Positions 33,497-50,150 of a DNA stretch of 64,000 bases are shown piece by piece. The notes below the pieces were generated by a model. That model searched no databases and was not told the DNA's origin. It saw nothing but the letters and a program-made list of their open reading frames with translations. This DNA comes from Polynucleobacter sp. TUM22923. GTDB taxonomy: Bacteria > Pseudomonadota > Gammaproteobacteria > Burkholderiales > Burkholderiaceae. The position numbers and the translations under genes are program-made. The number at the start of each line of letters is the position of its first letter. Positions within the stretch are counted from its first letter, which is position 1. The stretch is from NCBI RefSeq assembly GCF_030295705.1, contig NZ_AP027274.1, positions 434,001 to 498,000 on the forward strand, given 5' to 3'.

Positions 33497-33586
<90 letters not shown>

Positions 33587-33631
33587 AAACCTAGGTTCAC
33601 AACTTGCTCAGCCTTGTTGTGATCCCGCCAG

Positions 33632-33654
33632 AGCCCCGCACCACGCGGGGCTTT
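33632..33654. terminator. G+C-rich hairpin just inside the island
   Basis: A perfect 8-bp inverted repeat, AGCCCCGC with GCGGGGCT, has a five-base loop followed by only a short T-run. It could end the tRNA-Ser transcript or readthrough from the defence operon. The surrounding 247 bases (33587-33833) hold no convincing gene. Confidence 0.5.
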
Positions 33655-33833
33655 GCGCTTCTGGCTCCGAACCACGCCCACGGCGCTGGACCGAAAAAGC
33701 CGTCTCAAACCCCGTTTATCTCAAAACCTCATGACTTTTCTGGTCTAGGTTCGGAGGTCGGGTTTTTTGAATTTGGGTGGAAAAGCTGTGAACCGACCTG
33801 AATGAAATTTCGTTGTTCAGGAGGCTTTGGTCG

Positions 33834-35525
33834 TCAGCCGGTGATGAACACGTTAAGCCTGTTTGGGATACGTGCGCGACGCACTTCAAGGAACTTCTTG
33901 TAGGCAGGGGTGTCAAGCAGCTCTGGATCCAACGGAATCTCTTGGACGCTGAATCCCTCTTCCCCACTCTTTGCCGCAAAAAAGGCCAGGTATTCTTTTG
34001 GCGGCTTGTCGCTGATGACGCGGTTTGTCTTGCCACCAATGAATGCCAAGTTGGCTATATCGTCGGCCTCTCGCGAAATCACACCTGCCTTGGTGAGCAC
34101 AGCCTTTGGAAAAATAGGGTGGAACTGAAGGCGATGTTGAACGCCACTGTGATCAAGGGCAATCGTCAGATTGGAATGCCAGTCTTTTGCGCCAGCCGAG
34201 CGGAAGGCCAAGAACATCGTCTTGAACAACGCACTACGTTGGTTTCTTCCCGATAGCTCTTCAGGCGAAATTTCCAGCCTACCTACCTGCGAACGTAGTC
34301 GGTCAATCAAGTCCTGGATATCTCCTCCATCCCGAATCGAGGCAATGTCCTGATCAAGCAGTGTCTCACTTGAGCCGCGTGAGAATCGGCCATTGGCGTT
34401 AGCCGCAAGCACCCAATAACGCAGCAACTTGGACTCATCTGGCGAAATTTGGTAGTTGCGCTTATGCCCAAAATACGAAATGGCCACCATCATTGACGAA
34501 GAGGAAAGCAGTGCTGGACTATCAATGCCGACGTTACTTTTGAGAAAATTCATGGCGAAGTTCATGCCTTCGCAGGCTTCATTCCACGCGGTTTGAAGCC
34601 GGGTGATGTCAAGCGAGCTCACCGTCTTGAAACGAGATTGTCCAGTGGCCATGGCCACTAGATTCTTCAAGTGGATACCCAGTTCCAAATCAAATCCGAC
34701 TTCTTTGCACTTGATTTGAAATGCCTGGAAGGTGTGAAGTGAGTTTTTCCACTTTGCAGTGATTTGGGCCAGCGCTAGATCAGAGCTTCGAAGCTTTGCG
34801 CCAAGTGAGTTGACGCGCACAAAGATCTCAGTCACCTCGTCATAGGAAAGCGTGCGCTCCAGCACATCCATGCGGTACACGTACTTCTTGACGGCCCTGA
34901 GGCGATCAAGACGTTGGCTATAAAGGTCTGCACGAGGGTCATCAAAGGAGGTCACGCCAGCCCGTTTGAGGAAATCGGTGTTGCTTGTGCTCTTGAAAAC
35001 CTCTGAGACTTTGACCCAGCGCGGACTACTTTCCAACTTGCGGGTCGATACAACGAAGGTCATTCGGTCAAAACGCTGCTGGAGTTCATCCTCCGATGCG
35101 TCCACCTGGTCGGGCTCGGTGTCATCAACGTCACTTTCCTCATTGATTTCCATGAAGCCCTGAAGCTCATTGGGGTGCTCAAGGTTGAAAAGAATTTCAA
35201 TCGGACGCTTTCTGCCGCGAACATTCACAGGCTCACCACGAATCACAGCGGAAAGAGATGTGAGCCGCTGCTGCCCGTCTAAAAGCAGTCGTGTTGTTTT
35301 GTAGGGGTTACTTTGTTGTCCAACCGCCATGGCTTGCAATGGCACATCTTCGTCAGTCTCCCAAAGCAAGATCGCTCCGGAGGGGTAGCCACGATAAAGG
35401 GAGTCCAGAAGATCACGAACCCTGGTTGATCGCCATACATACTGCCGCTGCATCTCAGGCAAGCGTAGCTCGCCACGTTCAATCATTCCGACTAGTTCGT
35501 CAACCGATGCTTCTGCTTTTGCCAT
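33834..35525 (-). CDS. DUF262-DUF1524 (GmrSD-like) protein, putative modification-dependent nuclease
   Basis: The 563-residue protein is the last gene of the defence operon and begins six bases after res. The N-terminal DUF262 (ParB/Srx-like) domain has LPEMQRQYVW and the NTP-associated motif DGQQRLTSL at residues 83-91. The C-terminal region has HPIFPKA followed by a spaced N-x-x-N-segment (NLAFIGGKTNR), matching the HNH-type DUF1524 found in GmrD and BrxU. In those relatives DUF262 uses nucleotides to control HNH cleavage of modified phage DNA. Here both domains are in one chain. A type IV-like activity is inferred from family, not shown. The composition is somewhat less G+C-rich than the neighbours (28/60 in the line at 34501), which suggests a separate origin. 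Confidence 0.8.
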   Translation of the reverse strand: MAKAEASVDELVGMIERGELRLPEMQRQYVWRSTRVRDLLDSLYRGYPSGAILLWETDEDVPLQAMAVGQQSNPYKTTRLLLDGQQRLTSLSAVIRGEPVNVRGRKRPIEILFNLEHPNELQGFMEINEESDVDDTEPDQVDASEDELQQRFDRMTFVVSTRKLESSPRWVKVSEVFKSTSNTDFLKRAGVTSFDDPRADLYSQRLDRLRAVKKYVYRMDVLERTLSYDEVTEIFVRVNSLGAKLRSSDLALAQITAKWKNSLHTFQAFQIKCKEVGFDLELGIHLKNLVAMATGQSRFKTVSSLDITRLQTAWNEACEGMNFAMNFLKSNVGIDSPALLSSSSMMVAISYFGHKRNYQISPDESKLLRYWVLAANANGRFSRGSSETLLDQDIASIRDGGDIQDLIDRLRSQVGRLEISPEELSGRNQRSALFKTMFLAFRSAGAKDWHSNLTIALDHSGVQHRLQFHPIFPKAVLTKAGVISREADDIANLAFIGGKTNRVISDKPPKEYLAFFAAKSGEEGFSVQEIPLDPELLDTPAYKKFLEVRRARIPNRLNVFITG

Positions 35526-35531
35526 GATTTT

Positions 35532-38500
35532 TTACCCCACCAACTCCATCAGCTTCCCATACCCATCCACCACGTCGTACTTCACCTGGTCGGATGTGAT
35601 TTTGGCGAAAAATTTTCGGGCGCAGTCAATCTTACTTTGCTCGATTTTTCGCAGGTCCATGCTGGACATGGAACCCTTGGTTTCTGCGACAAAGTAGACG
35701 TGTTTCACCTTGCCCTCCTGGAAGGCAATGGCCCAATCCGGGTTGTAGTTGCCAACCGGGGTAGGGATAAAAAAACCGCGTGGTAGCTTGGCGTACACCA
35801 CCACTTCGGTGCTGGCATCCAGCTCACGCACAAAGTTGCGTTCGTTCTTGGAGTCGGTGAAAACGTAATCGTAGATGTGGTGATTGGCCTTGACCGCTTT
35901 ACTGAAATCTTCCTTGGCCTTGTCCTGGGTGAAGATGTCCATGTGGTACGTGTCGCCCGTGGGGTCGTAGGCAATGTGCTCCACTATCACAGTGGCCTTT
36001 TGCTCGTTCATCTGCCGGGCCGCTTTTTGCATGAAGTCTTCCGGGTTGGTCCGGTACTGACTGAACACCGCCTTGTTGATTCCCTGCAAGACACTGGCCA
36101 CGGTGGATCGTGTCAATTGCGTCTCTCCGGCCAGCCGTCCAATGAGGTCGTACTTCACCGCAGAGTGCGCTGACGCCCGGTGAAAATCCGTGGTGGATTC
36201 GGTCACTTTGAAGGATTCACCCTGGCGAATTCCGTCATAGGTTGCCGTGTCGGTCTGCTCGCCCGCCACCACGGTATATTGCATAGGGCTCACTTTGAGT
36301 TCGGCTTCCAAGGCCTTGACACACTTGGCCACCAGCTCCGGCGTTTCAAATTCCACCGTGTACGCTGCCTTGTGGTTGATGCGATTCCACAGCGCCTTGA
36401 ACTCGGCCTTGTCGAAGTTGGCATTGAGCGGGTTGGTTTTTGCCTTGCGGTCATTCCCAATGTCCGGCAGTTGCGCATCGCTGAACACGCTATCAATTAG
36501 CCCCAGTACCTGCTCGGCGTGAACCGCCAATTCCTCGGGCAGGTCGGCAAGCTGGCCTTCCTTTTTGGCGTCATGGTACTTCTGCGTGATGTTGCGCTTC
36601 TTGTCCACGTAGCCGTTTTGGATCAGGTAGAACTCGATGTCGGTTGCCATCTCGGCGGTAACTTCGACATCGCCGCTCGTGGTTTGGAGGACTTTGCCTT
36701 TGAAATATGCTTGGTCCGCCACCCGTGGCCGCTCCGACAATCCGTCGCTGATGTCGCGCTGCAACGCGGTCACAAAGTCCTTGTAACTCTCGCTGGCCAC
36801 CACGGTCAGCACGTTGATTTGGTGCACCGTGGCCGGGTTGTCCATGCGGTCGCCATGCTGATTGACGGACAAGCGCAGGCCGCGCCCGACTTCCTGGCGA
36901 CGGCTCACGGTGTTGTCGCTGTGTTTGAGCGTGCAGATCACAAACACGTTCGGGTTGTCCCAGCCCTCGCGCAATGCGGAGTGGGAGAAGATGAAACGCA
37001 CCGGCTCCTCAAACGACAACAGGCGTTCCTTGTCTTTCAGAATCAAGTCGTAGGCATCCACGTCATCGGTTTCTGTGGATTTCTTCCCGGTTTCCGGGTC
37101 CACCATCCGCTTGGTCTTCTTATCAATAGAGAAATAACCGTTGTGCGTCTTGCCGGTCGCGATTCCTTTCAGATACCGGTTGTACGGCGTGTCATCCAGC
37201 GTCAGCACCTCGGAGAGCTGCTGGTTGTACTCCTCCTCAAACATCCCGGCGTACTCACCGGGCTGCTCGCCTGCTTCGTTATAGCTGCGGTACTTGGCCA
37301 CCGCGTCAATGAAGAACAGCGACAGCACTTTGATGCCCTGGTTGAACAGCGCCTGCTCTTTCTCAAAGTGGGCTTTGACGGCCTCCCGAATTTGAATGCG
37401 TCGCAAGGCCGATTCACTGACATCGCCAGTCGCCTCACCCGCCATCAGCTCATGGCCATTGGTGAAACTCACCGTGTTGGTCAAGGCGTTGATGTCAGCC
37501 ACCACAAAGCCACGGTACTGCTCCAAATCGCCGGACATGTCGAACAGATTGTCATTGCGCGCGAGTTTGCGCAGCACGCGCTTGATGCCGTTGTTCTGCT
37601 TGATTTCCAACTCCACCCGCGCCACCGGGGCAGCGGTAGAAACCTCAATCGACTCCAAATACAGGTACGCATTGGTGCCGGTCAAGCCCTTGACTGAGAT
37701 ACCGCGCACGGAGATTTTCTTGACCAGCTTTTGGTTGTACGCATCCAGCGCGTCCAGGCGGTGAATTTTGTTGTGCGTCGTTTTGTGCGTGGCGGAATAA
37801 CGCAGCACAGCCAGTGGCTTGAAGTTCACCAATGAATCGAGAGTTTTGCCACCCTCCATCTTCTGCGGCTCGTCCAGGAAAAGCACCGGCCGGTTGGCGC
37901 TGATCACGTCAATCGGTCTGCGCGACTGGAAGTCGTCCAGCTCTTCGTAAATGCGGCGGGCGTCCTTGCCGGTGGCGTTGAAGGCCTGCACGTTGATGAC
38001 CATGACATTAATGCCCGCATCACTGGAAAAGCTTTCCAGGTTGTGCAGTTGCTTGGAGTTGTAAATGAAGAAGCGGGCGCGCTTCTTATAGTCGTCCAAA
38101 AAGTGCTCGGCGGTGATTTTCAGCGACTTGAACACGCCTTCGCGGATGGCAATGCTGGGCACCACCACAATGAACTTGCTCCACCCATAGCGGGCGTTCA
38201 GCTCGAACATGGTCTTGACATAGCAATACGTCTTACCCGTGCCGGTCTCCATTTCCACGTCCAGGTTGAAGTCACACACCTTGGTTCTGACCAAGGCGTT
38301 TGAGAGCGGCAGGTTTTGCCTGCGCTGCACGGCGTGGATGTTCTCCAACACCTGACCGGGGGTCAACGCCAGATCGGCATTCTTGAAACCCACAGTTTCC
38401 AACTCTGCCGCCGCCTGGCCACCGGCATCGACGGCACGGCCTGGGTCCACACGGTAGTTCAATACCTCGCGCTTTGGTTGCCCGAGAAAACAGTCCGCCA

Positions 38501-38552
38501 CCGCCTCCACTGCGTTGGTCTGGAAGGCTTGTTTTTTGAATTTTAGTTTCAT
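35532..38552 (-). CDS. Type III restriction enzyme, Res subunit
   Basis: Res supplies the ATPase motor and nuclease that, with Mod, cut unmodified DNA after meeting inversely oriented sites. From the ATG at 38552 it is 1006 residues. The superfamily 2 helicase has motif I METGTGKT at 101-108, motif II DEPQ at 227-230, a later [16 protein letters not shown] segment and motif [12 protein letters not shown]. The C-terminal endonuclease domain has NPDW, then ETKG after a hydrophobic strand, fitting PD-x(n)-E-x-K. All key residues are present, so the enzyme should be active. An upstream in-frame extension to 38648 crosses the repeated spacer and is rejected. It lies downstream of fic in the same operon. 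Confidence 0.93.
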
Positions 38553-38600
38553 GTGTTTCTCTGCAATGTCTCTGCAAGCTTCTATTTTTACTCTGCAATT

Positions 38601-38694
38601 TTGTGGAGCCTTGGGACTCCACAAGCCGCGTAGTGGAGCGCAAAACAAAAAATAGACTCCACAAACGTGTTTGTAGCGCGCACGGGCTCCACAA
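38601..38694. repeat. Repeated CTCCACAA elements between fic and res
   Basis: The octamer CTCCACAA occurs at 38617, 38657 and 38687, and its inverse TTGTGGAG at 38601, with a partial copy AGTGGAG at 38632. The inverted pair at 38601-38624 forms a 10-bp hairpin with one mismatch and a TTGG loop. This fills most of the longest spacer (147 bases) of an otherwise tightly packed operon. Confidence 0.7.
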
Positions 38695-38699
38695 CCATT

Positions 38700-39815
38700 T
38701 CAGAGCACCTCGTGGCCCTCGGCTAGATTGATCAGTCGGGGGAAGCACAGTGTGGCAGGCCGTCGGCCACTCCCAGCTTGTAGCTCCCGCAAGATACCCG
38801 CTGCCTTCAACTGCCGGAGCAAACCTGGGGTTGTCTTTTCGTGAATGCCAAACTCCCGAAACATTCGCGCCGTCAAGTCCGACGAGCGAAAAATCGGCTT
38901 AATAAAGATCGCATCCAGCACGTGTACCGTGTACTGCGAATGCGTGGCCGCCTGAATCGCCAGTTTCATCTCTTCGTAGAGTGACTGAATGGCCGTCACG
39001 CGCTTGCTGTTTTGCGCCGCCTGAGTGGTGATGGCCTGCAAAAAAAATGCAATCCAACCATTCCAGTCGCCATCTTCCGAAATGGCTTTGAGTCTTGCGT
39101 AATATTCTTCCCGATGATTTTCAAGATACTCCGACAAGTAAAACATGGGCTGTGACAACGCCCGTTTTTGAAACAGGAAAAGCGGAATCAAAATGCGACC
39201 AATCCGGCCATTGCCATCCTTGAACGGATGAAGCAACTCAAACTGGGCATGCAGCACAGCCGTTTGCAACAAAAAATCCACATCGTCACTGTCGAGATAA
39301 TGCTCCCAAGCTTGTAGATGGTCCGGCAGTTGGATGGGGTTGGGCGGTACAAAACTGGCTTGCTCCATCGTGCAACCATGTTTTCCAATCCAGTTCTGGT
39401 CAAGACGGAATACCCCAGGCGTCTTATCCTGCCCACGCACACTGCCCATCAAAATACGATGTAGCTCCCGAACAAAACTCAGTCGGATGGGGTAATCCTT
39501 CAAGTACTCACGCGCCGAATAAAGGGCTTTCCGGTAGTTGGAAATTTCTTGAATGTCCTCGTATTTCTGACCCTCCTTGATCAGCCCCGCTTCTTGCTCC
39601 AACACTTCATCAACCGTGGCTTGCGTGCCTTCAATTTTGGACGACAGAACCGCCTCCTGCGTAGCCAAAGGCGACAGCATCACCGCAGGGTTGGGGATGC
39701 CTTGCAATAGGCCATCGTATCGGGCCAGTGCCGCATTGGCCTGCCCTACCAGTGGCAACAGCAAACGGTAATCCAGGTCGGTAATCGGTAATGCATTGGG
39801 GATGTAGGGCTGCAT
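38700..39815 (-). CDS. Fic family protein (putative AMP-transferase) in the restriction operon
   Basis: Fic enzymes usually transfer AMP from ATP to a hydroxyl of a target protein. The 371-residue product has an N-terminal Fic_N region with the inhibitory-helix motif S-x-x-x-E-G (Ser58, Glu62, Gly63), the full catalytic loop HPFKDGNGR at 196-204, and a C-terminal winged-helix-like region of about 85 residues. The inhibitory motif in the same chain before the core marks it as class II, held inactive by its own glutamate. It begins 13 bases after mod and precedes res, so it is embedded between the two subunits of the restriction enzyme. The target is unknown. Confidence 0.88.
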   Translation of the reverse strand: MQPYIPNALPITDLDYRLLLPLVGQANAALARYDGLLQGIPNPAVMLSPLATQEAVLSSKIEGTQATVDEVLEQEAGLIKEGQKYEDIQEISNYRKALYSAREYLKDYPIRLSFVRELHRILMGSVRGQDKTPGVFRLDQNWIGKHGCTMEQASFVPPNPIQLPDHLQAWEHYLDSDDVDFLLQTAVLHAQFELLHPFKDGNGRIGRILIPLFLFQKRALSQPMFYLSEYLENHREEYYARLKAISEDGDWNGWIAFFLQAITTQAAQNSKRVTAIQSLYEEMKLAIQAATHSQYTVHVLDAIFIKPIFRSSDLTARMFREFGIHEKTTPGLLRQLKAAGILRELQAGSGRRPATLCFPRLINLAEGHEVL

Positions 39816-39828
39816 GGGGGCGTTTCTT

Positions 39829-41724
39829 TCAAATGCACTTGACTTCGGTGGTGGGCGACATCAGCTTGAAGATTTGCTCCACGTTGATTTTTATGCTGTC
39901 GCTGGCAAAGCCAGCATCGCGGAACACCACTCGCAGGGGCTCACGCTTGGCCAGCAGCTTCACGAAATCTTCGTTGACGCCCTCATCAAAGCATGCCGCC
40001 AGTGCATTGCCATCGACAAAGTACACGGTCTTGCCTGCGATGGCTTCCTTGGATATGGGCAATGCCAGGTCAACGCCCCAGTCCAGCAGCACCTGGAACA
40101 GCAAGTCCTCGGACGTGCGGTCTTCGCGGATGTTGTTGACTTGATCGGTCAGCAGGTCTTGCGAGACGGCGTCGGGGGTGTAGAACACCTCTTTCATGTT
40201 TGAGCTGTCGATTTTGAGAACACGAAAACCGATGTCGAGGTTTGAATTAGTTATTGCATGTTCATCTTTGACTTTTTTACCCGCACGGCGAATACGATCC
40301 TTGCAGATTTCTGCAATAGTTTTATAGCCAGCTTTAAATGCATCACTCCCCAAGTCACAAACCTCTGGAAGCTGAACCATGATTCCCCTTCGCGTGCCGC
40401 CATCTCTTAGATTCAAAGTCATCAGCGCATGTGCAGTCGAGGAAGATCCCGCAAAAAAGTCTAAGACAATTTCATCACCACCCGAACTAGTGCCAATTTC
40501 TAGTAGTTGCTCAATTAGCTTACTCGGCTTGGGATATGAAAATATCTTTGCATTTCCAAATATATCGAGAATTTCATTAGTGCCATGCTGGCTGAAAACA
40601 TTATCTATAAGTGAAAAGGCTTTTGCCTCACGAGTAATCCCATGCTCATCTTTTAGATATTGTTTACTATGCACACTCCACTCACCTTTCTTATCTTTTA
40701 AGAACTCCAATTCCGCATTACTTGCAGCTATTCGGACTCGTTCCCGACTCCAATACCACTGTCGTTTCGGGTTTATGAGCGTTCCATCGGGTGCTTCGAT
40801 CGGAAATACTAAATTTACACGCTCATCTACGGCTTTACCGGCTTCTAACGGGTGAGTCCTGTATGGCCCACGTATGCTGAAATTAGTATCCTTAGATTTG
40901 TAATAGCGTTGGATGCTTTCGTCACTTAAAGGAATAAATATTTCCCCCAAGTCGTTTATAGATTTTGCGTAAATTAAGATGTACTCATGTAGAGTCACTA
41001 AATGCTTTTCCTTCGCTCCTCCTCCATACCTTTTTTTCCAAATAATACAGTCAACAAAATTCTCTTCACCAAAAATTTCGTCACAAAGCTTTCTCAGATT
41101 AGCACCTTCATTATCATCAATTGAGATAAAAACAAGTCCATCTTCGCGCAGTAAATTTCGTGATAGCTTCAGACGAGAATAAATCATGCTTAACCAGTCG
41201 GAGTGCATGCGACCGTTGCTTTCAGTATTCGCCACCAGTCGATTGCCCTGTATATCCTTTTGATTGGAACGCTCAAAATAGGAAGCAGAATCCTCCGCAA
41301 AATCATCCTCATAAATGAAATCATTCCCCGTGTTGTAAGGCGGATCGATGTAGATCATCTTGACCTTGTTCAGATAGGTCTCTTGCAGCAGTTTCAGCGC
41401 ATCAAGGTTGTCGCCCTCAATGAACAGGTTTTGCGTGGTGTCAAAGTCCACGCTCTCCTCACGGCACGGGCGCAGGGTTTTGGCAATGGGTGCATTGGCG
41501 GTCAGCAACGCTTCGCGTTTGCCGGGCCAATTGAGCTGGTAGCGCTCCTGCGGGCCTTCCACGATGGAACCAGACAGCTCCTGGCGCAGTTGGTCAAAGT
41601 CTATGCTTTTCGTCACCACGCCGTCGGCATCGCGCGCCTCGGCCATGCAGTTAGGGAACAGCGCCGCAATTTTGTCGATATTGGCCTGCGTAAGGTCAGG
41701 GCTGTGCATTTTCATTTTATTCAT
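39829..41724 (-). CDS. Type III DNA methyltransferase, Mod subunit
   Basis: Mod methylates adenine at N6 in the recognition site, and its target-recognition domain sets the specificity of Mod and Res. The 631-residue beta-class enzyme has motif IV DPPY at 127-130 first, then a variable central region, then motif I as LDFFAGSSSTAHA (Phe424, Gly426) near residue 421, the order expected for type III. The ATG at 41724 is preferred over TTG two codons earlier. The segment from just after DPPY to about residue 500 is strikingly A+T-rich compared with both ends of the gene (21/60 G+C at 40561 against 36/60 and 37/60 at 40081 and 41461), suggesting replacement by recombination. Confidence 0.93.
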   Translation of the reverse strand: MNKMKMHSPDLTQANIDKIAALFPNCMAEARDADGVVTKSIDFDQLRQELSGSIVEGPQERYQLNWPGKREALLTANAPIAKTLRPCREESVDFDTTQNLFIEGDNLDALKLLQETYLNKVKMIYIDPPYNTGNDFIYEDDFAEDSASYFERSNQKDIQGNRLVANTESNGRMHSDWLSMIYSRLKLSRNLLREDGLVFISIDDNEGANLRKLCDEIFGEENFVDCIIWKKRYGGGAKEKHLVTLHEYILIYAKSINDLGEIFIPLSDESIQRYYKSKDTNFSIRGPYRTHPLEAGKAVDERVNLVFPIEAPDGTLINPKRQWYWSRERVRIAASNAELEFLKDKKGEWSVHSKQYLKDEHGITREAKAFSLIDNVFSQHGTNEILDIFGNAKIFSYPKPSKLIEQLLEIGTSSGGDEIVLDFFAGSSSTAHALMTLNLRDGGTRRGIMVQLPEVCDLGSDAFKAGYKTIAEICKDRIRRAGKKVKDEHAITNSNLDIGFRVLKIDSSNMKEVFYTPDAVSQDLLTDQVNNIREDRTSEDLLFQVLLDWGVDLALPISKEAIAGKTVYFVDGNALAACFDEGVNEDFVKLLAKREPLRVVFRDAGFASDSIKINVEQIFKLMSPTTEVKCI

Positions 41725-41802
41725 GGTCAATTAGGCTTCTAGCCCCCGTGGAATATGCGCAAGCAGATATCAAATGTATAGCTACTGCAATATTGATTTC
41801 AT

Positions 41803-42489
41803 TCATGAGGCCAGCAAACCCAGCTCTGTGCGAAGGGTGCGCAACTCGGCGTTGATTGTGACCTTGCGATTGAACTGCTTTTCAGCGTTCAACCGGGATT
41901 CAAGTTTGGCAGCGGCAACCTGCTTTGCAGCCAGTGCAGACAGGCGGTCTAGCTGGGCACGCAGCGATTCGCCTAGACGGGCTGGCAAGGCAAAGTGCTG
42001 ACGCAAAAGCTGCTCGTAAAGGCCCAGCAAATCCAGCGCCATAGGCAATGCAGGCCGGACAACACCGTCGCTTTGCCACGGTGCGGCGTGGTAGTCCCCC
42101 ACCACCCACTGGTCACTGGCAGCATCGCTGGGCCGCTTGTGTGCCGCAACGGGCCGAGTGCGCCCGTCAAACCGTAGGTTGAAGAGGATGGGGAAGGGTA
42201 TGGCCTTGTCGATACACCGAAGCACCAAATGACTGATGTCAGGCAGCTTCAAAGCCACCTCAAACACTTCAATCTCCGGGACGCCAGCCTTTGCGGGCAG
42301 GTTGATGGTTTCGGGTGAGAGCTTGTAAGCCCAAGTGATGCTCTCTACCTGCTCTACAAACATGGCACGCAAGGCTGCGCTGGGCTTGGCATGGGCGTAG
42401 ATTTTGGTCTTGGCCACTGGGCGGTCAACCTTTGCCTGGCGTGGCCATGCAAACAACGCGACCGGCTGGGTGTCCAAAGTGGCAGTCAT
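41803..42489 (-). CDS. DUF4391 domain protein
   Basis: The 228-residue soluble protein of unknown function has no membrane segments. It has an N-terminal tail ending in a Trp-rich loop (ALFAWPRQAKVDRP), a central alpha/beta part with FEVALKLPDISHLVLRCIDKAIPFPILFNL, and a C-terminal helical region (about 150-228) with a likely coiled coil: LYEQLLRQHF, then SLRAQLDRLSAL and repeated charged heptads. The pattern matches DUF4391. Its start overlaps the stop of the helicase gene by ATGA, so the two are translated together and probably act together. It lies upstream of mod, 78 bases apart. No catalytic motif is evident; a structural or adaptor role is a guess. Confidence 0.75.
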   Translation of the reverse strand: MTATLDTQPVALFAWPRQAKVDRPVAKTKIYAHAKPSAALRAMFVEQVESITWAYKLSPETINLPAKAGVPEIEVFEVALKLPDISHLVLRCIDKAIPFPILFNLRFDGRTRPVAAHKRPSDAASDQWVVGDYHAAPWQSDGVVRPALPMALDLLGLYEQLLRQHFALPARLGESLRAQLDRLSALAAKQVAAAKLESRLNAEKQFNRKVTINAELRTLRTELGLLAS

Positions 42490-45400
42490 GGGGCCTGAAT
42501 CACCAAGAAGCTGATCAGTTCAAAGTCTTCGAGCCCGGCAACTTCTTGCACCAAAGCGCTGGTCTTGCCCGGTGAGAACAGGCTGTCCACGTCTTGCTCT
42601 TGCTGGCGGTCGATCATCGAGCGGATCGCCTTGTCCAGCAATGTGGAGTAGGCCTTCATATTGCGGCCATCGTCTGTGACTTTGTTGAAGGGCTCAAAAG
42701 CGGCGGGCATCGGCTCACTGCGGCCTTTGCAGGCCGTACGGGCCAGATCCAGCAAGGCTTTGACCTCCATGTGGTCGGCAATGATGGAGCCGTCCATGCC
42801 GATATAAACCAAGTAATACGGGTGCAGCCGGTTCTTTTGCTGCACTACCCCACCAGCTGCACCACTCAACAGGCGGTTGCGAAGAGTAAAAATAACGCCG
42901 GGCTGCAAGCCTTTGTCCGGGTTGGCGGGCACCACAGCATGCAAGCCATTGGGGAGGCGGGCCAGGTCGTCATGGGCTTTGACGTAGTTCAGCAAATCCA
43001 TGCGGAAGTCGTTCAGGCCCAGGTCGGTAATAGATACCCCGGTTTTGAGGTCTTCCATCTCGATAACCTCCTCCTGCAAGCGGCGCAATTGCTCCTTGCG
43101 GTAGGCCACGTCGTTGGCCTGGGAAGACAGCACGTTGTCATCGCCCGTGGCGGTCACGTCGGCAATCATCATGCGGCTTTCCACCCGCTCTTTGAGGCGG
43201 ATGTACTCGTCCAGGCTGATATCGGGCCAGTAGTTGACCAACTGGATACGCGCATTAGGAGAGCCAATACGGTCCACCCGGCCAAAGCGCTGAATGATGC
43301 GCACCGGGTTCCAGTGGATGTCGTAGTTGATAACGGTGTCGCAGTCCTGCAAGTTCTGGCCTTCGGAGATGCAGTCGGTGCCTATCATCACGTCGATTTC
43401 GCCCGGCTCATGCGGCATGGTCAGCGCCTTCTCTTTGGCGCGGGGTGCAAACAGCGTGAGCATGGTTTGAAAATCAATCCCTTGGCGCGGATTCGCGGCC
43501 AGCCTGAGTGTGGTTTTGGGCTCGGTAGAGCCGGTAACCTTGCCGGTGTGGATGCCGTGTTTCTGGAACAGGCTTGCGGCCAAGTTGTCGTACAGGTAGT
43601 TGGCGGTGTCCGCGAACGCAGTGAATATAAGCAGCTTGCGGTTGCCGGGATTAATGGGGTTGGCCACCTTGTGCTCGATCTGCGCTTTGAGGTGTTGGAG
43701 CTTGGCATCGTCCGCCGGAGTGATTTTGGCCATTTCAGCCAAAAGCCCGTCAATGACGGCCAGGTCAGCGCCAAGGTCATGCTCCCAGGATGGCAAGTCC
43801 ATATCGCCTAGGTCGATTTGCACTTTGCCGCCCGTGCGGTTGTCATTGCCGCCTCGGTCATCATCCAGGTCGGGTAACAGATCGTCATCAAAATCGGCGT
43901 CTTCAAAGTCCGGCGTGTGGTCGGTGAATTTGGCGGCTTTGCCCGACTTTTTGAAGGCGGCAATCTTGGTTAAAGCCTTCTGGTGGTTGCTTTGCAGGCT
44001 TTGTAACGTTAGGCGGAACGACGCGACGGAGCTTTCCAGTCGTTTCAGTAAGTTGACCGTCATCAGCGCCTGCAAGCTTTTCTCGCGGTCGGCCTGCTTT
44101 AACTTGCCACCACCGCTGGCCACCTCGGTGTCGTACATATCCTCGTATTTCTTGATACGGCTGGGCAGGATGTAGCTCACTGGGGCATACACGGCCAGCT
44201 TTAAGAGCGAGAGCTGGTTGAAGATGTCATTGAAGCCAATCACGTCGGTGCGCTTGGTCAACGGGCAGTGGAACGACAGCGGTTTAAGGCGTTCCGGGAA
44301 GTTACCGATGTCCTTGGTGTCGTAGAAGGTTTCGATGTGCTTGCGCGACCGGGCAATGGTTACGCTGTCCAGCAACTCGAAAAAGTCGAAGTCCAGCGCA
44401 GCCAAGATGGCGCTGGCGGTACGCTCCTCGGGTGGCAACTTGGTCCAGGTGTTAAACGCCGTTTGTGCGCGCCGGAATATCTCGTCAATGTCCTTCTCGG
44501 TGCGCAGCTTGTCACCCAGCAAACCGGCGTTGCCTTCATAGGCCAGGGCCAGTTGGTTGCGCAGATCGTTGAACCTGTTGTTGACCGGAGTGGCAGACAG
44601 CATCAGCACCTTGGTTTTGACGCCCTGCTTGATAACGGAGTTCATCAGCTTCTGGTAGCGAGTCTCCTTGTCCTTGTAGACATCGTTGTTGCGGAAGTTG
44701 TGCGACTCGTCGATAACCACCAGGTCATAGTTACCCCAATTGACCCGGTTAAGTGGCGTGCCAAACGACTCGCCACTGGTGCGCTGCAAGTCGGTATGGC
44801 AGAGCACCTCGTAGTTGAACCGGTCTTTGGCGAAGATGTTGGTTTTGAGATTGCGGTTGTAGGTGAGCCAGTTGTCGGCCAGTTTCTTGGGGCACAGCAC
44901 CAGCACCGAGCGGTTGCGCAGCTCGTAATACTTGATGACGGCCAGCGCCGTGAAGGTTTTACCCAGGCCCACACTGTCGGCCAGGATGCAGCCGTTGTAG
45001 GTTTCCAGCTTGTTGATGATGCCGGTGGCGGCATCGCGCTGAAAGTTGAACAGTTTTTGCCACACCAAGGTGTCCAGGTAGCCAGTGCGGTCGTTGGGCA
45101 ACACGTCTTCGTTGAGGTCTTCTAGGAACTCGTTGAAGATGTTGTAAAGCATCAGGAAGTAGATGCGCTCGGGCGAATTTTCTTGGTAAACCGACGCGAT
45201 GTGCTCGCATACGAGATTTGTAACGTCGGTGAGCTTGTCAGGATCAGCCCAAATCTGGTCGAACAGGTTCAGGAACACGCCGGTATGACCGGGCTCGTCG
45301 AACTTGTTGACGATATTAGACACCGCGTTGCCACGCTGGTAACCCAAGTCGACAGCAGTAAAGCCATGCAGCGGCATGTAAACCGCATTGGGCGTTGCTG

Positions 45401-45812
45401 CGGCAGCGGTCTGCACCGCTGCAAACTGCTGCATGGGTGCGCCGCCACTGTTGGACCGAAACTTGGCCTTGCGGCGCATCCAGTCGGCACATTCGCGGGC
45501 GATGGCACGCTGGGTCAGCTTGTTTTTAAGCTGCACCTCAAACTCGGTGCCGTAGAAGCTGCGCTCAGCCCCTGCTTTTGGAATGTGGAATTCGCGCCGT
45601 TCTTTCTTTACTGCATCGGTCACTTGCTCAGGGATGAACGAAGGCGACGTGAAAATGAATTCCAATGCATCGATGGTTTCCAGCTCAGCCTTTAATGCTT
45701 CGTATGCATAAATGGAGAAACACGAAGCTGCTACTTTCAGCCGTCCGCCGGGTTTTAGCTTTTCTTTGAGATCGTCGCCAAGCAGGTTGTTGATGTTGTC
45801 GATCAGTTCCAT
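42486..45812 (-). CDS. SNF2-family helicase with N-terminal PLD-like region
   Basis: The 1108-residue ATPase has an N-terminal part (about 1-200) resembling the phospholipase-D-like domain found on phage-defence helicases, although I see no clear HxKx4D catalytic motif. The motor follows, with FQRDA (Q-like motif) near 257, Walker A ADSVGLGKT at 278-286, DESH at 368-371, LSATPVNN, then a second lobe with LLIFTAFADTANYL, GTDCISEGQNLQDCD and RIIQRFGRVDRIGS. A charged acidic insertion (DDDLLPDLDDD) separates the lobes. The product probably translocates on double-stranded DNA. Its ATG shares a base with the WYL stop (TAATG) and its stop overlaps DUF4391 (ATGA), placing it firmly in the operon as a second motor beside Res. 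Confidence 0.87.
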   Translation of the reverse strand: MELIDNINNLLGDDLKEKLKPGGRLKVAASCFSIYAYEALKAELETIDALEFIFTSPSFIPEQVTDAVKKERREFHIPKAGAERSFYGTEFEVQLKNKLTQRAIARECADWMRRKAKFRSNSGGAPMQQFAAVQTAAAATPNAVYMPLHGFTAVDLGYQRGNAVSNIVNKFDEPGHTGVFLNLFDQIWADPDKLTDVTNLVCEHIASVYQENSPERIYFLMLYNIFNEFLEDLNEDVLPNDRTGYLDTLVWQKLFNFQRDAATGIINKLETYNGCILADSVGLGKTFTALAVIKYYELRNRSVLVLCPKKLADNWLTYNRNLKTNIFAKDRFNYEVLCHTDLQRTSGESFGTPLNRVNWGNYDLVVIDESHNFRNNDVYKDKETRYQKLMNSVIKQGVKTKVLMLSATPVNNRFNDLRNQLALAYEGNAGLLGDKLRTEKDIDEIFRRAQTAFNTWTKLPPEERTASAILAALDFDFFELLDSVTIARSRKHIETFYDTKDIGNFPERLKPLSFHCPLTKRTDVIGFNDIFNQLSLLKLAVYAPVSYILPSRIKKYEDMYDTEVASGGGKLKQADREKSLQALMTVNLLKRLESSVASFRLTLQSLQSNHQKALTKIAAFKKSGKAAKFTDHTPDFEDADFDDDLLPDLDDDRGGNDNRTGGKVQIDLGDMDLPSWEHDLGADLAVIDGLLAEMAKITPADDAKLQHLKAQIEHKVANPINPGNRKLLIFTAFADTANYLYDNLAASLFQKHGIHTGKVTGSTEPKTTLRLAANPRQGIDFQTMLTLFAPRAKEKALTMPHEPGEIDVMIGTDCISEGQNLQDCDTVINYDIHWNPVRIIQRFGRVDRIGSPNARIQLVNYWPDISLDEYIRLKERVESRMMIADVTATGDDNVLSSQANDVAYRKEQLRRLQEEVIEMEDLKTGVSITDLGLNDFRMDLLNYVKAHDDLARLPNGLHAVVPANPDKGLQPGVIFTLRNRLLSGAAGGVVQQKNRLHPYYLVYIGMDGSIIADHMEVKALLDLARTACKGRSEPMPAAFEPFNKVTDDGRNMKAYSTLLDKAIRSMIDRQQEQDVDSLFSPGKTSALVQEVAGLEDFELISFLVIQAP

Positions 45813-46738
45813 TACTCATCAGCCTTTTCATTGGACGAATGGCCTGGCGCCAGTGTGGCACTCTCCACACCGTACAGCGTCTGATGATTGCGCAACCATA
45901 AATGATGCTCTTTGCAATCCAAGCTGTGGTCCGTCGTGCAGTCCACCGACCAACGCCTTAGTGCATAGCCAACAAGAGGGGCTCGCATGTCAATGCTGAA
46001 CATGCCCTTTTCCATGCGAAAGTCAGCTTCGACGGCTTTGGGATGTTCTAGCCCTGGGTGCGGGACCATCTCCAGTCGAACAATACGAGCCCATTGGGCA
46101 TCTGCCTCAATTTGCTGGGCGTCTGGAATTGGTTTGTTCAGGTTCTTTGCTTTGACGATGCGAGTCAGCGAGAAGTCGGCAAAGCGCTCGCGTTCGCAGT
46201 CATAGGCGCGCAAATGCCAACGCAAGCCAGTGTCAGCAAGGGCCAGCGGGCTTAGAGTCTTAGTTGATGCACCTGAGGCAACAGACAGGTAACTGACTTT
46301 GACTTGGCGCTTGTTGGCGATTGCCCGAGTGAGAACAGCCAAGGTCTCAAGGTCTGGCTTGACGAGGTCGCTGGCGGTTTCGCATGGAACTGTGCAGCGC
46401 AGCTTGAGGTCTAGGCCATCTCCAAACCCTGATCTAAACCAAGTGAGCACGCGGTCAGCGGTGTGCTCGAACAACGGCGAGAAATAATCAGTGGTCGCGT
46501 AGCGGCGCTGAGACGGGTCGTAAATAAGGTTGTGCGGTGCAAGGCGGCGGTAGGTGGCTAGGTCACGTGCGGTGGCCGCAGGCTTGACCCCGAAGCGCCT
46601 TTCGATGTCCGCACGGGACAGGTCTGCACAGAAGTACGCCTTGAATTCGATAAACGACAGCCGCTCCCGCTGGCCTTGGGAGAGGTCGTCTAGCTGAGCT
46701 GCAACTCTCTTTGTGACCACAAAGGCGTCCTTGTTCAA
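45812..46738 (-). CDS. WYL-domain transcriptional regulator (BrxR/CapW type) of the defence operon
   Basis: The 308-residue protein is the first gene of the seven-gene operon. Residues about 20-85 form a winged helix-turn-helix (IEFKAYFCADLSRADIERRFGVKPAATARDLATYRRLAP), the middle is a WYL domain (VKVSYLSVASGASTKTLSPLALADTGLRWHLRAYD), and the rest is a C-terminal extension. This order is that of BrxR and CapW, which repress BREX, CBASS and other defence operons and respond to a nucleic-acid or nucleotide ligand. The start is TTG with no evident ribosome site; other starts nearby would cut the DNA-binding region, so translation may be weak or leaderless. Autoregulation is inferred from position. 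Confidence 0.83.
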   Translation of the reverse strand: MNKDAFVVTKRVAAQLDDLSQGQRERLSFIEFKAYFCADLSRADIERRFGVKPAATARDLATYRRLAPHNLIYDPSQRRYATTDYFSPLFEHTADRVLTWFRSGFGDGLDLKLRCTVPCETASDLVKPDLETLAVLTRAIANKRQVKVSYLSVASGASTKTLSPLALADTGLRWHLRAYDCERERFADFSLTRIVKAKNLNKPIPDAQQIEADAQWARIVRLEMVPHPGLEHPKAVEADFRMEKGMFSIDMRAPLVGYALRRWSVDCTTDHSLDCKEHHLWLRNHQTLYGVESATLAPGHSSNEKADE

Positions 46739-46780
46739 ATAGTATGGGTTCTACTTTAGCAGATTCAGACACTCCGCTCT

Positions 46781-46798
46781 ATCATTTTGATGCATGAT
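46781..46798. promoter_or_regulatory. Candidate operator upstream of the WYL operon
   Basis: The inverted repeat ATCAT-N8-ATGAT lies in the 106-base spacer between the divergent WYL and DUF3293 starts. WYL repressors of the BrxR type bind short inverted repeats in such positions. The arms are only five bases long, so chance occurrence is possible. Confidence 0.3.
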
Positions 46799-46844
46799 GT
46801 AGTTGTTGCTGCTAGCTGTACGTTAAATGAAGGGGTGAGTTGTT

Positions 46845-47273
46845 TTGCAAGTTGAATCAGTAATTTCGCCGGAGACGGTCCAGGCATATCGGGAGACAGA
46901 TTTCCGCGTCGAGATTGACCCGTCACTGGTCTTGCGTATAGATGTACGTAATCCAGCATTGGCGGAGCTCTACAAAGCCTTTGGGGCTGAAACTTGCGTT
47001 TTCATCACGGCTTGCAACCCCAACGGGGTGTTGCTGAGCGATGGGGAAAACCTCAAACTGCAGGAGCAATTGCTTCGTGAGCTTGGCGTACGAAGCCTTG
47101 ATTACCTACCAGGTGAAGGCAAGCACCCCACAGGTAATTGGCCAGGGGAGCCGAGCTTTCTGGTTTTTGGTCTATCGCTTGAGGCCGCTAAGACTCTTGG
47201 CCGAAGGTTTCACCAAAATGCTGTCGTGTGGTGCGGATCTGATGCGATTCCACAGCTTCTCATCTTGCGGTAA
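46845..47273 (+). CDS. DUF3293 domain protein
   Basis: The 142-residue cytoplasmic protein has unknown function. Conserved DUF3293 marks are visible: AYRETDFRV near the N-terminus, VFITACNPNGVLLSDGEN in the middle, then GEGKHPTGNWPGEPSFLVFG, and RFHQNAVVWCG towards the end. The start is TTG with AAGGGG nine bases upstream. It is divergent from the defence operon and followed after 11 bases by an alpha/beta hydrolase gene, so those two are probably co-transcribed. Whether they belong to the defence function is unclear. Confidence 0.75.
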   Translation: MQVESVISPETVQAYRETDFRVEIDPSLVLRIDVRNPALAELYKAFGAETCVFITACNPNGVLLSDGENLKLQEQLLRELGVRSLDYLPGEGKHPTGNWPGEPSFLVFGLSLEAAKTLGRRFHQNAVVWCGSDAIPQLLILR

Positions 47274-47284
47274 CTGGTCGCGCG

Positions 47285-47839
47285 ATGAACATGGAGAACG
47301 CTGTTTATTACCTGCCCGGATACGGCGGTAGGCTTTCAACTGGCTTGGGTGCAGCATTGACATCCCGTGGCTTGGCCATCGCTGGACGCGAGACAGTTGG
47401 TGAGTTCCAGGGCATGCCGTTTAAAGATCAGGTTGACACAGTTGCGGCAGATCTCCAAGACCATTTTTGGAATGACAGCGCGCGCGTAATTGCAAATTCA
47501 TTCGGCGCATATTTGTTTTTACATGCGCAGGCTCAAATGGAGCCATATTTGGGCAGAGTGTTGCTTCTCTCGCCAATCGTCGGCGAGTTTTCCAGTACCG
47601 AGACTTCCATGAATTTCATTCCGCCAAAGGCCGAGGCGCTTTCTGGGCTGATCAAGGCGGGTAAATTTAAACCGCCTACTCAGTGCGAGATACACGTCGG
47701 TGCACTGGATTGGCAGAGCAATCAGGACCAAGTGAGCGAACTTGGACGGTTGCTGGGTATCGGCGTTAATGTGGTACCCGGAGGTGGGCACATGCTCGAC
47801 AAGGGGTACGTTGGGGCGCTACTGGACCGCTGGCTCTAA
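47285..47839 (+). CDS. Alpha/beta hydrolase
   Basis: This is a 184-residue compact hydrolase without a signal peptide. The oxyanion strand is YYLPGYGG near residue 8. The nucleophile elbow ANSFGAY, near residue 68, has Ser in the position of the usual GxSxG, with Ala replacing the first Gly. A likely acid is in GALDWQSNQD, and the catalytic His is in GGGHML near the C-terminus. The triad order is normal. The substrate is unknown. It overlaps the convergent recombinase-module gene by 21 bases at its 3' end. Confidence 0.72.
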   Translation: MNMENAVYYLPGYGGRLSTGLGAALTSRGLAIAGRETVGEFQGMPFKDQVDTVAADLQDHFWNDSARVIANSFGAYLFLHAQAQMEPYLGRVLLLSPIVGEFSSTETSMNFIPPKAEALSGLIKAGKFKPPTQCEIHVGALDWQSNQDQVSELGRLLGIGVNVVPGGGHMLDKGYVGALLDRWL

Positions 47840-48247
47840 CTCGCTTGGTTTGCGAGGCTTCAAAAAGTGCGCTTCTTGCGCACCCCACTCCATGGGAAAT
47901 GGCTCCATGAGGTCCTTCATGGTTATGTGAGCCGGGTACTTACCGCTCAGGATCGCCTCAATGATGTCGGGCGACAGGTATGCCAGGCGCAGGATGCGAC
48001 TCACAAACGACGCGCTGATATTTTCTGACTTGGCCAGGTCCTCGATCGAGGCATGGGTGCCATCGAACAGTTTGCGCTGCCAGCGGTGGCCACGCGCCAC
48101 CAACTTGACCATGGCGTTGTCAATAAGCGCCTCGCCCCGCTCGATGGCGCGCTCACCGTTTGGCAGCATGATGACGGCCTTGCCCCCACGTTTGCGAAAA
48201 GACATGGCTATCTCGGTGCTGAAACCAGTTGGGGTGTCGTGATTCAT
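47819..48247 (-). CDS. Small protein with helix-turn-helix, downstream of the serine recombinase
   Basis: From the ATG at 48247, which overlaps the recombinase stop by ATGA, the product is 142 residues. After a basic N-terminal strand (FRKRGGKAVIML) comes a region that looks like a ParB/KorB-style helix-turn-helix: SIEDLAKSENISASFVSRILRLAYLSPDIIEAIL. The C-terminus contains KDLMEPFPMEW. I do not recognise a named family. The overlap with the recombinase gene suggests it is a partner such as a directionality factor or regulator, but this is only inference. Confidence 0.6.
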   Translation of the reverse strand: MNHDTPTGFSTEIAMSFRKRGGKAVIMLPNGERAIERGEALIDNAMVKLVARGHRWQRKLFDGTHASIEDLAKSENISASFVSRILRLAYLSPDIIEAILSGKYPAHITMKDLMEPFPMEWGAQEAHFLKPRKPSELEPAVQ

Positions 48248-49587: not shown

Positions 49588-50030
49588 CAAATGCTCCTTC
49601 CGCCAAGCAAACCAAAGAACGTCCAGCCGTTTCGGTTGGTTCCAGTAATGACCATAGCGATGCGCGAGATGGACTTGTAGCGCTGGCCCGCGTACTCAAA
49701 GTCGTCGATGTGGACCAAAACCTCGTGGCGCTGGCCGTCCCACTCACGGATAAGGCGTGTGCCGCTGATAGGTCTGCCGTCAACGCGGCGGCGGCGGACA
49801 TCGGGCTTGCCCCCGTCTAGTTGCTCCCCAAGCTTTTCAAGTCGCTTGATGGTCTCCCGCTTGAGGCCACCAAGGGCCACCTCCTGTATGCGGTAGGCAA
49901 GGCGCGTTTCAAGGAAGCGGCGGTTAAAGGGCGGGGCCTGAGTCAAGAACATTTCTCGCCACATCTGCTTTAGGTCAGCCGTGGGGGCCGTCTTGAGGGC
50001 TGCAACGCGTGCAACAAGTGAGTCATTCAT
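49587..50030 (-). CDS. DUF2924 domain protein
   Basis: The 147-residue basic protein has FNRRFLETRLAYRIQE near residue 35 and, later, RRVDGRPISGTRLIREWDGQRHEVLV and YKSISRIAMVITGTNRNGWTFFGL. These are the DUF2924 signature, including the small domain seen at the ends of some serine integrases that touches DNA. It lies directly upstream of the recombinase with overlapping stop and start, so it is likely a co-translated recombination accessory protein. Function is unproven. Confidence 0.78.
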   Translation of the reverse strand: MNDSLVARVAALKTAPTADLKQMWREMFLTQAPPFNRRFLETRLAYRIQEVALGGLKRETIKRLEKLGEQLDGGKPDVRRRRVDGRPISGTRLIREWDGQRHEVLVHIDDFEYAGQRYKSISRIAMVITGTNRNGWTFFGLLGGRSI

Positions 50031-50150
50031 GGGTGTTGTCCTTGGTAGTTGTTACACCTGTATGAACGCTCTCTTCGGCGCGCTTAGCAAGTTGAGCTTC
50101 GCGTTTCTGGCGATCCAGCATGCGAATTGCGCCTTGGGCCAGGATTGCGC
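50023..50150 (-). pseudogene. 5'-truncated small gene of the recombinase module
   Basis: In frame before DUF2924, with an 8-base overlap at its stop, is the tail of a gene encoding GAILAQGAIRMLDRQKRE and a further 24 residues. The start is missing because IS3 sequence lies immediately upstream. The same protein segment, with Tyr for Met, occurs in the intact 66-residue gene at 53500-53700. Confidence 0.65.

What the first reader, a model, noticed from the sequence alone, without database searches (positions are those of the whole stretch)
33834..46738. Seven-gene composite defence operon built around a type III restriction system
Seen: seven co-directional genes, WYL regulator, PLD-like/SNF2 helicase, DUF4391, Mod, Fic, Res and DUF262-DUF1524. 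WYL/helicase (TAATG) and helicase/DUF4391 (ATGA) overlap. Mod-Fic and Res-DUF262 gaps are 13 and 6 bases, DUF4391-Mod 78 and Fic-Res 147. Known: Mod and Res alone form a type III system; GmrSD-like proteins attack modified DNA; SNF2 and PLD helicases occur in several phage-defence systems. Inference: this is one coordinated system in which methylation-sensitive and modification-dependent arms, a second motor and a Fic enzyme act together. I know of no described system with this exact composition.
Basis: partly seen in the sequence, partly recalled or inferred. Interest (0 to 1): 0.85.

Follow-up and report, generated by a model that had tools for sequence, protein, structure and literature searches.

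The report
Four-gene restriction system with swappable cargo
A bacterial defence operon that looked like a unique seven-part machine is really a widespread four-gene version of a known DNA-cutting system, carrying a regulator and two add-on genes that other bacteria replace with different ones.

Summary
The seven co-directional genes are real and look intact, but the conserved unit is four: PLD-like/SNF2 helicase, DUF4391, Mod, Res. Of 107 loci, 94 show all four in this order and direction, 12 are cut by a contig end, and one (L077) is a broken exception. The unit spans 12 named phyla plus a candidate division. Helicase, DUF4391, Res and both ends of Mod diverge together; Mod's middle (target-recognition) part does not. 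Fic and DUF262 sit in slots where relatives carry Schlafen/AlbA ATPases, RhuM, Bro-N, Abi_2, UvrD, SIR2-HerA or GmrSD. This Fic occurs with DUF4391 and Mod in two other loci found here. GmrSD-type genes flank or enter ten other loci, none of them with Fic. The first gene is a BrxR-family regulator, upstream in 7 of 107 loci. The helicase's PLD domain lacks the HKD motif in 104 of 104 homologues, so Res is the only recognised core nuclease. DUF4391 models confidently but matches no PDB fold. The operon lies on a 20.4-kb insertion behind tRNA-Ser. Ten paper searches found no description of the unit in the part of the literature held here. Verdict: new variant of type III restriction with exchangeable cargo.

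The parts
45812..46738 (-). WYL regulator, BrxR family (optional part)
   Evidence: Pfam WYL; nearest PDB sequence 7qfz E 8e-74, then CapW and BrxR 7t8k (that 7qfz is the E. fergusonii BrxR is recalled). Directly upstream of the helicase in 7 of 107 loci.
42486..45812 (-). PLD-like (no HKD motif) + SNF2 helicase, core gene 1
   Evidence: PADLOC C3a139 'HKD+Snf2' 8.6e-125, residues 183-1105; helicase motifs GLGKT, DESH, SATP, QRFGRVDR; H.K....[DN] absent from the first 300 aa of 104 of 104 homologues; N-domain model (pLDDT 73.8) resembles SauUSI 7clg, E 5.6e-5.
41803..42489 (-). DUF4391 protein, core gene 2
   Evidence: PF14335 6e-54; AlphaFold2 pLDDT 95.5; no PDB or BFVD match with E<0.001.
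39829..41730 (-). Mod, type III DNA methyltransferase, core gene 3 (likely start ATG 41724)
   Evidence: PADLOC MTase_III 9.6e-231 full length; DPPY at 129, FAGSS at 426; central part evolves independently of Res; only PF01555 match in this genome (other methylase families were not searched).
38700..39815 (-). Fic protein of the SoFic group, cargo between Mod and Res
   Evidence: PADLOC SoFic 9.6e-114; HPFKDGNGRIGR and SSKIEG; same slot in L073 (73% identity), L147 and L162.
35532..38648 (-). Res, type III restriction subunit, core gene 4 (likely start ATG 38552)
   Evidence: PADLOC REase_III 1086 bits; EcoP15I Res 4zcf 1.3e-75; TGTGKT, DEPQ, and PD...ETK near the C-terminus.
33834..35525 (-). 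DUF262 (GmrSD_N) protein, cargo after Res
   Evidence: PF03235 2e-28; PADLOC HEC-05 1.7e-48 full length; 7p9k DUF262 protein 1.2e-14; DGQQR.
33497..33586 (+). tRNA-Ser(cga), left edge of the insertion
   Evidence: ARAGORN; followed directly by the RecQ-like gene in 4 of 10 same-genus relatives fetched.
33587..53995 (.). 20.4-kb insertion between tRNA-Ser and the RecQ-like gene (53996-55831) relative to those four relatives; may be composite
48244..50030 (-). Large serine recombinase (48244-49590) and DUF2924 gene (49587-50030) on the same insertion
   Evidence: Pfam Resolvase, Recombinase, DUF2924.

Best explanation
[quoted passage not shown] Shown by sequence comparison: Mod and Res look catalytically intact; helicase, DUF4391, Mod and Res are a fixed, co-diverging unit; Mod's recognition part is exchanged independently; Fic and DUF262 occupy slots with high turnover. 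Inferred: Mod marks one strand of an asymmetric site with N6-methyladenine; Mod-Res recognises unmarked entering DNA and Res cuts it. The PLD-SNF2 helicase, whose PLD fold lacks the catalytic motif and so probably only binds DNA or partners, forms a translationally coupled pair with DUF4391. DUF4391 probably docks the motor to Mod-Res through its C-terminal helical hairpin, helping the complex search, clear proteins from or translocate along invading DNA. The Fic protein is probably a backup effector, self-inhibited by its SSKIEG motif until infection or loss of restriction releases it. The DUF262 protein probably attacks phage DNA with modified bases. The BrxR-like regulator probably represses the operon until needed.
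For: Order and direction kept in 94 of 107 loci; 12 of the other 13 are cut by a contig end. In a phylum sample of 398 genomes DUF4391 is in 23 and the helicase (695 bits or more) in 21, with 20 shared; the 3 DUF4391-only genomes have it at a contig end, one of them with a helicase fragment at the edge. Helicase-DUF4391 overlap of exactly 4 bases in 51 of 98 loci. Distance correlations over 74 loci: helicase-Res 0.93, helicase-DUF4391 0.91, DUF4391-Res 0.88, Mod-Res 0.75. Along Mod, rho with Res is 0.68-0.75 for residues 3-92, 0.20-0.49 for windows between 63 and 212, -0.14 to 0.07 for 183-494, and 0.75-0.81 for 495-614. Catalytic motifs. Cargo turnover and make-up.
Against: Nothing here tests function. 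Co-divergence could reflect transfer as a block without physical interaction. One locus (L077) keeps helicase and DUF4391 but has only the first 115 residues of Mod and no Res in the remaining 2.8 kb. One helicase relative (G111, 696 bits, 41% identity) stands beside an Eco57I-type methylase with no DUF4391 or type III homologue near it, so the motor can occur outside type III systems. Many Mod-Res pairs lack the module. The Schlafen/AlbA cargo and the empty state are more clustered on the tree than shuffled labels (1 and 0 of 500 shuffles as low), so cargo is partly inherited, not purely swapped. The docking role of DUF4391 is inferred from its shape alone. No inverted repeat of 8 bases or more was found at 46700-46900 that would suggest a BrxR-type operator.
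Confidence: 0.6

Rival explanations
1. Two restriction arms share one methyltransferase: Mod's mark is read both by Res, which cuts, and independently by the helicase-DUF4391 pair, which acts like a DISARM, Dpd or BREX motor and blocks the DNA without cutting.
For: The helicase's named PADLOC and NCBIfam relatives include DrmD, DpdE, BrxHI and HmaA motors. A relative pairs with an Eco57I-type methylase and no Res homologue nearby (L151). It lacks a recognisable nuclease.
Against: In DUF4391 loci Res is present wherever the stretch allows a check, apart from the broken L077, and Res diverges with the helicase more tightly than Mod does, which argues for one machine with Res.
Confidence: 0.25
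2. One reading: all seven genes form one coordinated system.
For: Co-directional genes with short gaps in the window. GmrSD genes lie in or directly after the core in ten other loci (one of them, L054, by similarity only). Fic recurs in the Mod-Res gap (L073, L147, L162). In L073, L147 and L162 the sequence ends in or just after Res, so a following DUF262 gene cannot be ruled out there.
Against: None of the ten other GmrSD-bearing loci has Fic. Slot content differs between close cores, e.g. L063/L108, L083/L096, L097/L099. 11 of 12 Fic loci fetched for this check have no DUF4391, Mod or Res homologue beside them, though some are on short contigs. WYL is directly upstream in 7 of 107 loci.
Confidence: 0.1
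3. A chance stack of unrelated defence genes gathered on an island.
For: The operon lies on a tRNA-adjacent insertion with a serine recombinase; Fic and DUF262 are exchangeable.
Against: The four core genes are fixed across 12 named phyla plus a candidate division, with co-divergence.
Confidence: 0.05

Closest known systems
EcoP15I-type (type III) restriction-modification
   Same: Mod and Res with the expected motifs and order; Res similar to EcoP15I Res 4zcf.
   Different: Adds an upstream PLD-SNF2 helicase and DUF4391, and cargo slots; the window has Fic between mod and res.
DISARM, Dpd and BREX motor subunits (DrmD, DpdE, BrxHI) and the PLD proteins SauUSI and NgoAVII R
   Same: SNF2-type motor next to a DNA modifier; PLD-fold N-domain resembles SauUSI (E 5.6e-5) and, less strongly, NgoAVII R (E 1.3e-3).
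   Different: No DUF1998 (DrmB) or PglZ domain in Pfam for the operon's proteins; scores far below NCBIfam cut-offs; HKD motif absent.
SoFic, single-gene abortive-infection Fic
   Same: Full-length PADLOC match; Fic and inhibitory-type motifs. Sofic is said to act by AMPylation and abortive infection (PMC12249575: start of abstract and one passage seen).
   Different: Scores 191 against the NCBIfam SoFic cut-off of 550; embedded between mod and res.
BrxR-regulated BREX + BrxU island of pEFER
   Same: BrxR-family regulator and a DUF262 type IV-like gene beside a modification-based system; the paper also reports type III + type IV clusters with BrxR (passages and section 22 read).
   Different: Type III core with DUF4391 and helicase in place of BREX.
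BREX-Related (DUF499) systems and HKD+SF2-helicase CxC/Pbe systems (PMC12839542 outline and passages, PMC10853773 passages)
   Same: Helicase plus methyltransferase gene sets with auxiliary effectors.
   Different: They centre on DUF499 or CxC ABC ATPases; the passages read do not describe this type III core, and 'DUF4391' is in neither main text (one search finds it in one other paper only).

Membership tests
Type III restriction-modification | Beta-class Mod methyltransferase: DPPY before the FxGxG-like motif, recognition part between | tested here: met
   DPPY 129, FAGSS 426; variable centre; MTase_III 9.6e-231. The class order is recalled.
Type III restriction-modification | Res with SF2 motor and C-terminal PD-(D/E)xK nuclease | tested here: met
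   TGTGKT, DEPQ, PD...ETK; PF19778 2.3e-34; 4zcf.
Type III restriction-modification | One-strand methylation and need for two inverted sites | not testable with these tools
   Needs methylome and cleavage assays.
DISARM | DrmA helicase plus DrmB (DUF1998) | tested here: not met
   No DUF1998 in Pfam for the ten proteins scanned; no DrmB among the PADLOC hits shown (25 of 43 shown for the helicase); DrmA only a partial hit to the helicase at 1.1e-14. The rest of the window was not scanned for it.
BREX | PglZ and BrxC | tested here: not met
   No such hit in Pfam or among the PADLOC hits shown for the ten proteins scanned.
PLD (HKD) nuclease | HxKxxxxD catalytic motif | tested here: not met
   H.K....[DN] in 0 of 104 helicases in the first 300 residues; a bare H.K occurs in 11 of 78 in the first 280.
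SoFic | Full-length Fic protein with HPFxxGNGRxxR | tested here: met
   but below the NCBIfam equivalog cut-off.
GmrSD / BrxU type IV restriction | DUF262 with DGQQR plus DUF1524 (HNH) domain | tested here: inconclusive
   DUF262 and DGQQR met; DUF1524 not reached in Pfam, H469...N...N by eye.
BrxR regulators | wHTH-WYL protein closest to BrxR/CapW | tested here: met
   7qfz 8e-74 over residues 16-302.
BrxR regulators | Inverted-repeat operator upstream | tested here: inconclusive
   No inverted repeat of 8 or more bases at 46700-46900; the paper says not all homologues have one.

The most novel reading that the evidence does not exclude
The helicase-DUF4391 pair turns a type III enzyme into a two-stage, multi-module immune machine: a nuclease-free motor with a new adaptor fold is loaded by Mod-Res at unmodified sites and strips or blocks phage DNA, while the Mod-Res and DUF4391-Mod slots hold guard effectors (Fic, RhuM, Schlafen-like ATPases, Abi_2) that are set off when a phage disables restriction. 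This would make the slots a general catalogue of restriction-guarding suicide genes.
Probability: 0.3. Interest if true: 0.72.

Novelty: new variant of a known kind. Interest (0 to 1): 0.48.

Why it matters
The PADLOC models scanned here label this locus as type III RM, SoFic and candidate genes and have no model for DUF4391, so its real unit, four genes that stay together, is easily missed. That unit is found in 12 named phyla plus a candidate division, and on plasmids; the five-gene CFT073 locus (WYL plus the core) is covered to at least 80% in one place in 54 of 5,426 complete E. coli genomes (whether each copy is intact was not checked). It includes a protein family of unknown function with a confidently modelled fold that matched no solved structure. 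The cargo slots point at a set of exchangeable effectors that can be tested directly for guarding restriction. For the original claim it shows how a long tidy operon can mix a fixed machine with passengers.

Tried and rejected
Considered and rejected: the whole operon as DISARM, BREX, Dpd or ARMADA (no defining partners among the proteins scanned; ARMADA from passages of PMC12458937); the helicase as an active PLD nuclease (motif absent); Fic as a constant partner.

Led nowhere: fold matches for DUF4391 in PDB (best E 0.026, TM 0.18) and BFVD; direct repeats of 14 bases or more of the tRNA-Ser region elsewhere in the window (none); inverted repeats upstream of WYL; promoter scan no better than shuffles (4 found, 6.9 expected) and terminator scan 25 against 17.1, sd 5.2. 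Literature: ten searches. 'DUF4391' is in one paper of the library (listing only, not opened); none of the passages read describes the four-gene unit. The library lacks most subscription papers, and supplements were not open to me, so absence from print is not shown.

Five pairs are at least 97% identical in helicase and one member of each was dropped, but not in the counts. 8 of 96 Mod-Res gaps were over 250 bases without a plus-strand ORF of 100 aa and got no label in the change count; the tree there is a quick one with 18 of 85 inner branches poorly supported. Frameshifted genes in some draft contigs (e.g. L058, L113, L125, L128) make gap sizes unreliable and some cargo ORFs may be fragments. 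L077 is an exception. A 116-aa ORF with a 23-bit Fic match in L075 and WYL fragments in L033 and L040 were not counted. Two of the 50 proteins (both DUF262-annotated, from L031) were added by hand, and one cut ORF (L108) was left out. In L146 (G122) the ORF before Fic is mostly PAS domain with a 41-bit Mod match, so I do not count it as an intact Mod-Fic-Res locus. Of 38 plasmid hits I looked at 8 regions.


Full report
OBSERVATION. Seven minus-strand genes from 46738 down to 33834 are open and ordered as reported. Family scans give WYL, a PLD-like/SNF2 helicase, DUF4391, type III Mod, Fic, type III Res and DUF262. Motifs expected for activity are present in Mod (DPPY, FAGSS), Res (TGTGKT, DEPQ, PD...ETK), Fic (HPFKDGNGRIGR, with an SSKIEG inhibitory-type motif), DUF262 (DGQQR) and the helicase (GLGKT, DESH, SATP, QRFGRVDR). 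That these motifs go with activity is recalled knowledge.

IS IT ONE SYSTEM? In 94 all four core genes could be placed, always in the order helicase, DUF4391, Mod, Res on one strand. Of the other 13, 12 are cut by a contig end; L077 is a real exception, with helicase and DUF4391 intact, two cargo genes, only the first 115 residues of Mod, and no Res in the remaining 2.8 kb. Three more annotated plasmids fit too (Aeromonas, Mycolicibacterium, Photobacterium). The 80 contigs carry labels of 12 named phyla, one candidate division and one organism without a stated phylum. In a phylum-wide draw of 398 genomes, DUF4391 is in 23 and the helicase at 695 bits or more in 21, with 20 shared. The three DUF4391-only genomes have it at a contig end, one with a helicase fragment at the edge; the one helicase-only genome (G111) is discussed below. 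Res of this kind is wider (43 of 398 at E 1e-30): Mod-Res occurs without the helicase and DUF4391 in L148, L150, L152 and L157, so dependence runs one way.

CO-DIVERGENCE. Over 74 loci with all four proteins full length (near-identical copies removed), protein distances correlate: helicase-Res 0.93, helicase-DUF4391 0.91, DUF4391-Res 0.88, and Mod with the others 0.71-0.75 (each p 0.005, the floor of 199 permutations); in the 69 closer loci the values are 0.90, 0.87, 0.83 and 0.59-0.65. Mod's weaker value has a clear cause: its ends track Res (rho 0.68-0.75 for residues 3-92, 0.75-0.81 for 495-614) while residues 183-494 do not (rho -0.14 to 0.07, identity down to 22%); windows in between are intermediate. 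The recognition part is swapped on a constant chassis. Such diversity of Mod recognition domains is known (PMC3311624, listing and start of abstract seen). Shared transfer history could also produce the co-divergence.

CARGO SLOTS. Among measured loci, a plus-strand ORF of at least 100 aa sits between DUF4391 and Mod in 21 of 101, between Mod and Res in 34 of 96 and between helicase and DUF4391 in 7 of 103; 46 of the 94 complete loci have at least one. Of 86 internal ORFs of 90 aa or more, 77 are co-directional. Of 55 scanned (the plus-strand ones of at least 100 aa from loci in native orientation), Pfam finds Schlafen AlbA_2 in 13, RhuM 5, Bro-N 4, 23S IVP 4, GmrSD 2, PIN 2, Fic/Doc 2, UvrD 2, and single Abi_2, DUF2130, HerA, SIR2 and others. 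Of 50 co-directional proteins after Res (48 from the systematic list, 2 added by hand from L031), 7 are GmrSD_N, 4 HerA, 3 SIR2, 3 Mrr. On a helicase tree of 88 rows, 81 of them labelled, the Mod-Res slot needs at least 24 changes of state: L063 (RhuM) and L108 (AlbA), or L083 (empty) and L096 (RhuM), have close helicases. The window's nearest relative, L056, has an AlbA ATPase where the window has Fic. Against pure swapping, the AlbA and empty states are more clustered than shuffled labels (1 and 0 of 500 shuffles as low), so cargo is partly inherited.

FIC AND DUF262. The window's Fic has a 73% identical counterpart in the same slot of L073, one in L162 (DUF4391-Mod-Fic-Res) and one in L147 (Mod-Fic-Res without helicase or DUF4391). 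The slot association is therefore recurrent, but rare and not tied to the core. Of 12 Fic loci fetched for this check, 11 have no DUF4391, Mod or Res homologue, some on short contigs. GmrSD-type genes lie in or directly after the core in ten other loci (L031, L045, L054, L057, L059, L087, L090, L109, L121, L125; L054 by similarity only) and before it on the Aeromonas plasmid. None of these ten has Fic. In L073, L147 and L162 the sequence ends in or just after Res, so whether DUF262 follows there is unknown. The regulator belongs to the BrxR family (7qfz 8e-74) and stands directly before the helicase in 7 of 107 loci. BrxR homologues near clusters of type III plus type IV restriction are reported in PMC9122601 (section 22 read).

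THE UNKNOWN MODULE. The helicase N-domain models as a PLD fold (pLDDT 73.8), nearest SauUSI, but the motif H.K....[DN] is absent from the first 300 residues in 104 of 104 homologues. PADLOC's label 'HKD+Snf2' should not be read as a nuclease here. DUF4391 models at pLDDT 95.5 from 64 sequences as an alpha/beta domain with a C-terminal helical hairpin. Foldseek finds nothing convincing in PDB (best E 0.026) or BFVD. Absence of a match is not proof of a new fold. A distant helicase (G111) sits beside an Eco57I-type methylase, and two other type III loci have a different SNF2 helicase directly upstream of Mod (L149, L153). An SNF2 motor has thus been paired with a modification enzyme more than once.

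SETTING. In four of ten same-genus relatives fetched, the RecQ-like gene follows tRNA-Ser(cga) directly. In the window 20.4 kb lie between them (33587-53995), holding the operon, a serine recombinase with DUF2924, and an alkaline phosphatase-like gene. In the other six relatives no RecQ-like match was found within the fetched stretch. DUF4391 was found in none of the 24 other same-genus genomes searched. No flanking repeat was found, so the insertion mechanism is open.

MECHANISM. Best explanation: an extended type III enzyme in which the helicase-DUF4391 pair works with Mod-Res, Mod supplies exchangeable specificity, and the slots hold backup effectors. The unit and the exchangeability are shown by comparison; the motor's task, the docking role of DUF4391, the backup role of Fic and the repressor role of the WYL protein are inferred from relatives. 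Main rival: the pair is a separate, Res-independent arm reading the same mark. Deletion and mutant tests that separate them are listed under next steps.

NOVELTY. My ten paper searches found no description of this four-gene unit, but the library is partial and I read passages, not whole papers. I rate it a new variant of a known kind; the seven-gene claim itself is not supported.

Noticed in passing
   Followed up: partly
L149 8112-10961 (-) and L153 7068-9998 (-): A different SNF2 helicase lies directly upstream of type III Mod in two genomes, a separate pairing of an SNF2 motor with type III restriction.
   Followed up: partly
Mod-Res gap in 15 of 96 measured loci, e.g. L050 11651-13306: A 552-aa protein, in the scanned representative Schlafen AlbA_2/HATPase_c_4, is the commonest cargo of the Mod-Res slot; the tree needs at least 9 changes for it.
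   Followed up: partly
L077 10001-22795: Helicase and a DUF4391 fused into a 720-aa ORF, then two long cargo genes and a Mod reduced to its first 115 residues, with no Res in the fetched stretch.
   Followed up: partly
window 50100-50590 (-): The minus strand reads like an IS3-type transposase orfA next to the serine recombinase; judged by eye only.
   Followed up: no
window 46845-47839 (+): A DUF3293 gene and an unassigned 184-aa gene lie between the operon's promoter side and the recombinase genes.
   Followed up: no
L174 (Aeromonas media plasmid) 6807-22266: An eight-gene version: DUF262, helicase, DUF4391, ATP-binding domain protein, Mod, AAA ATPase, DUF4276, Res, with both inner slots filled.
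   Followed up: no
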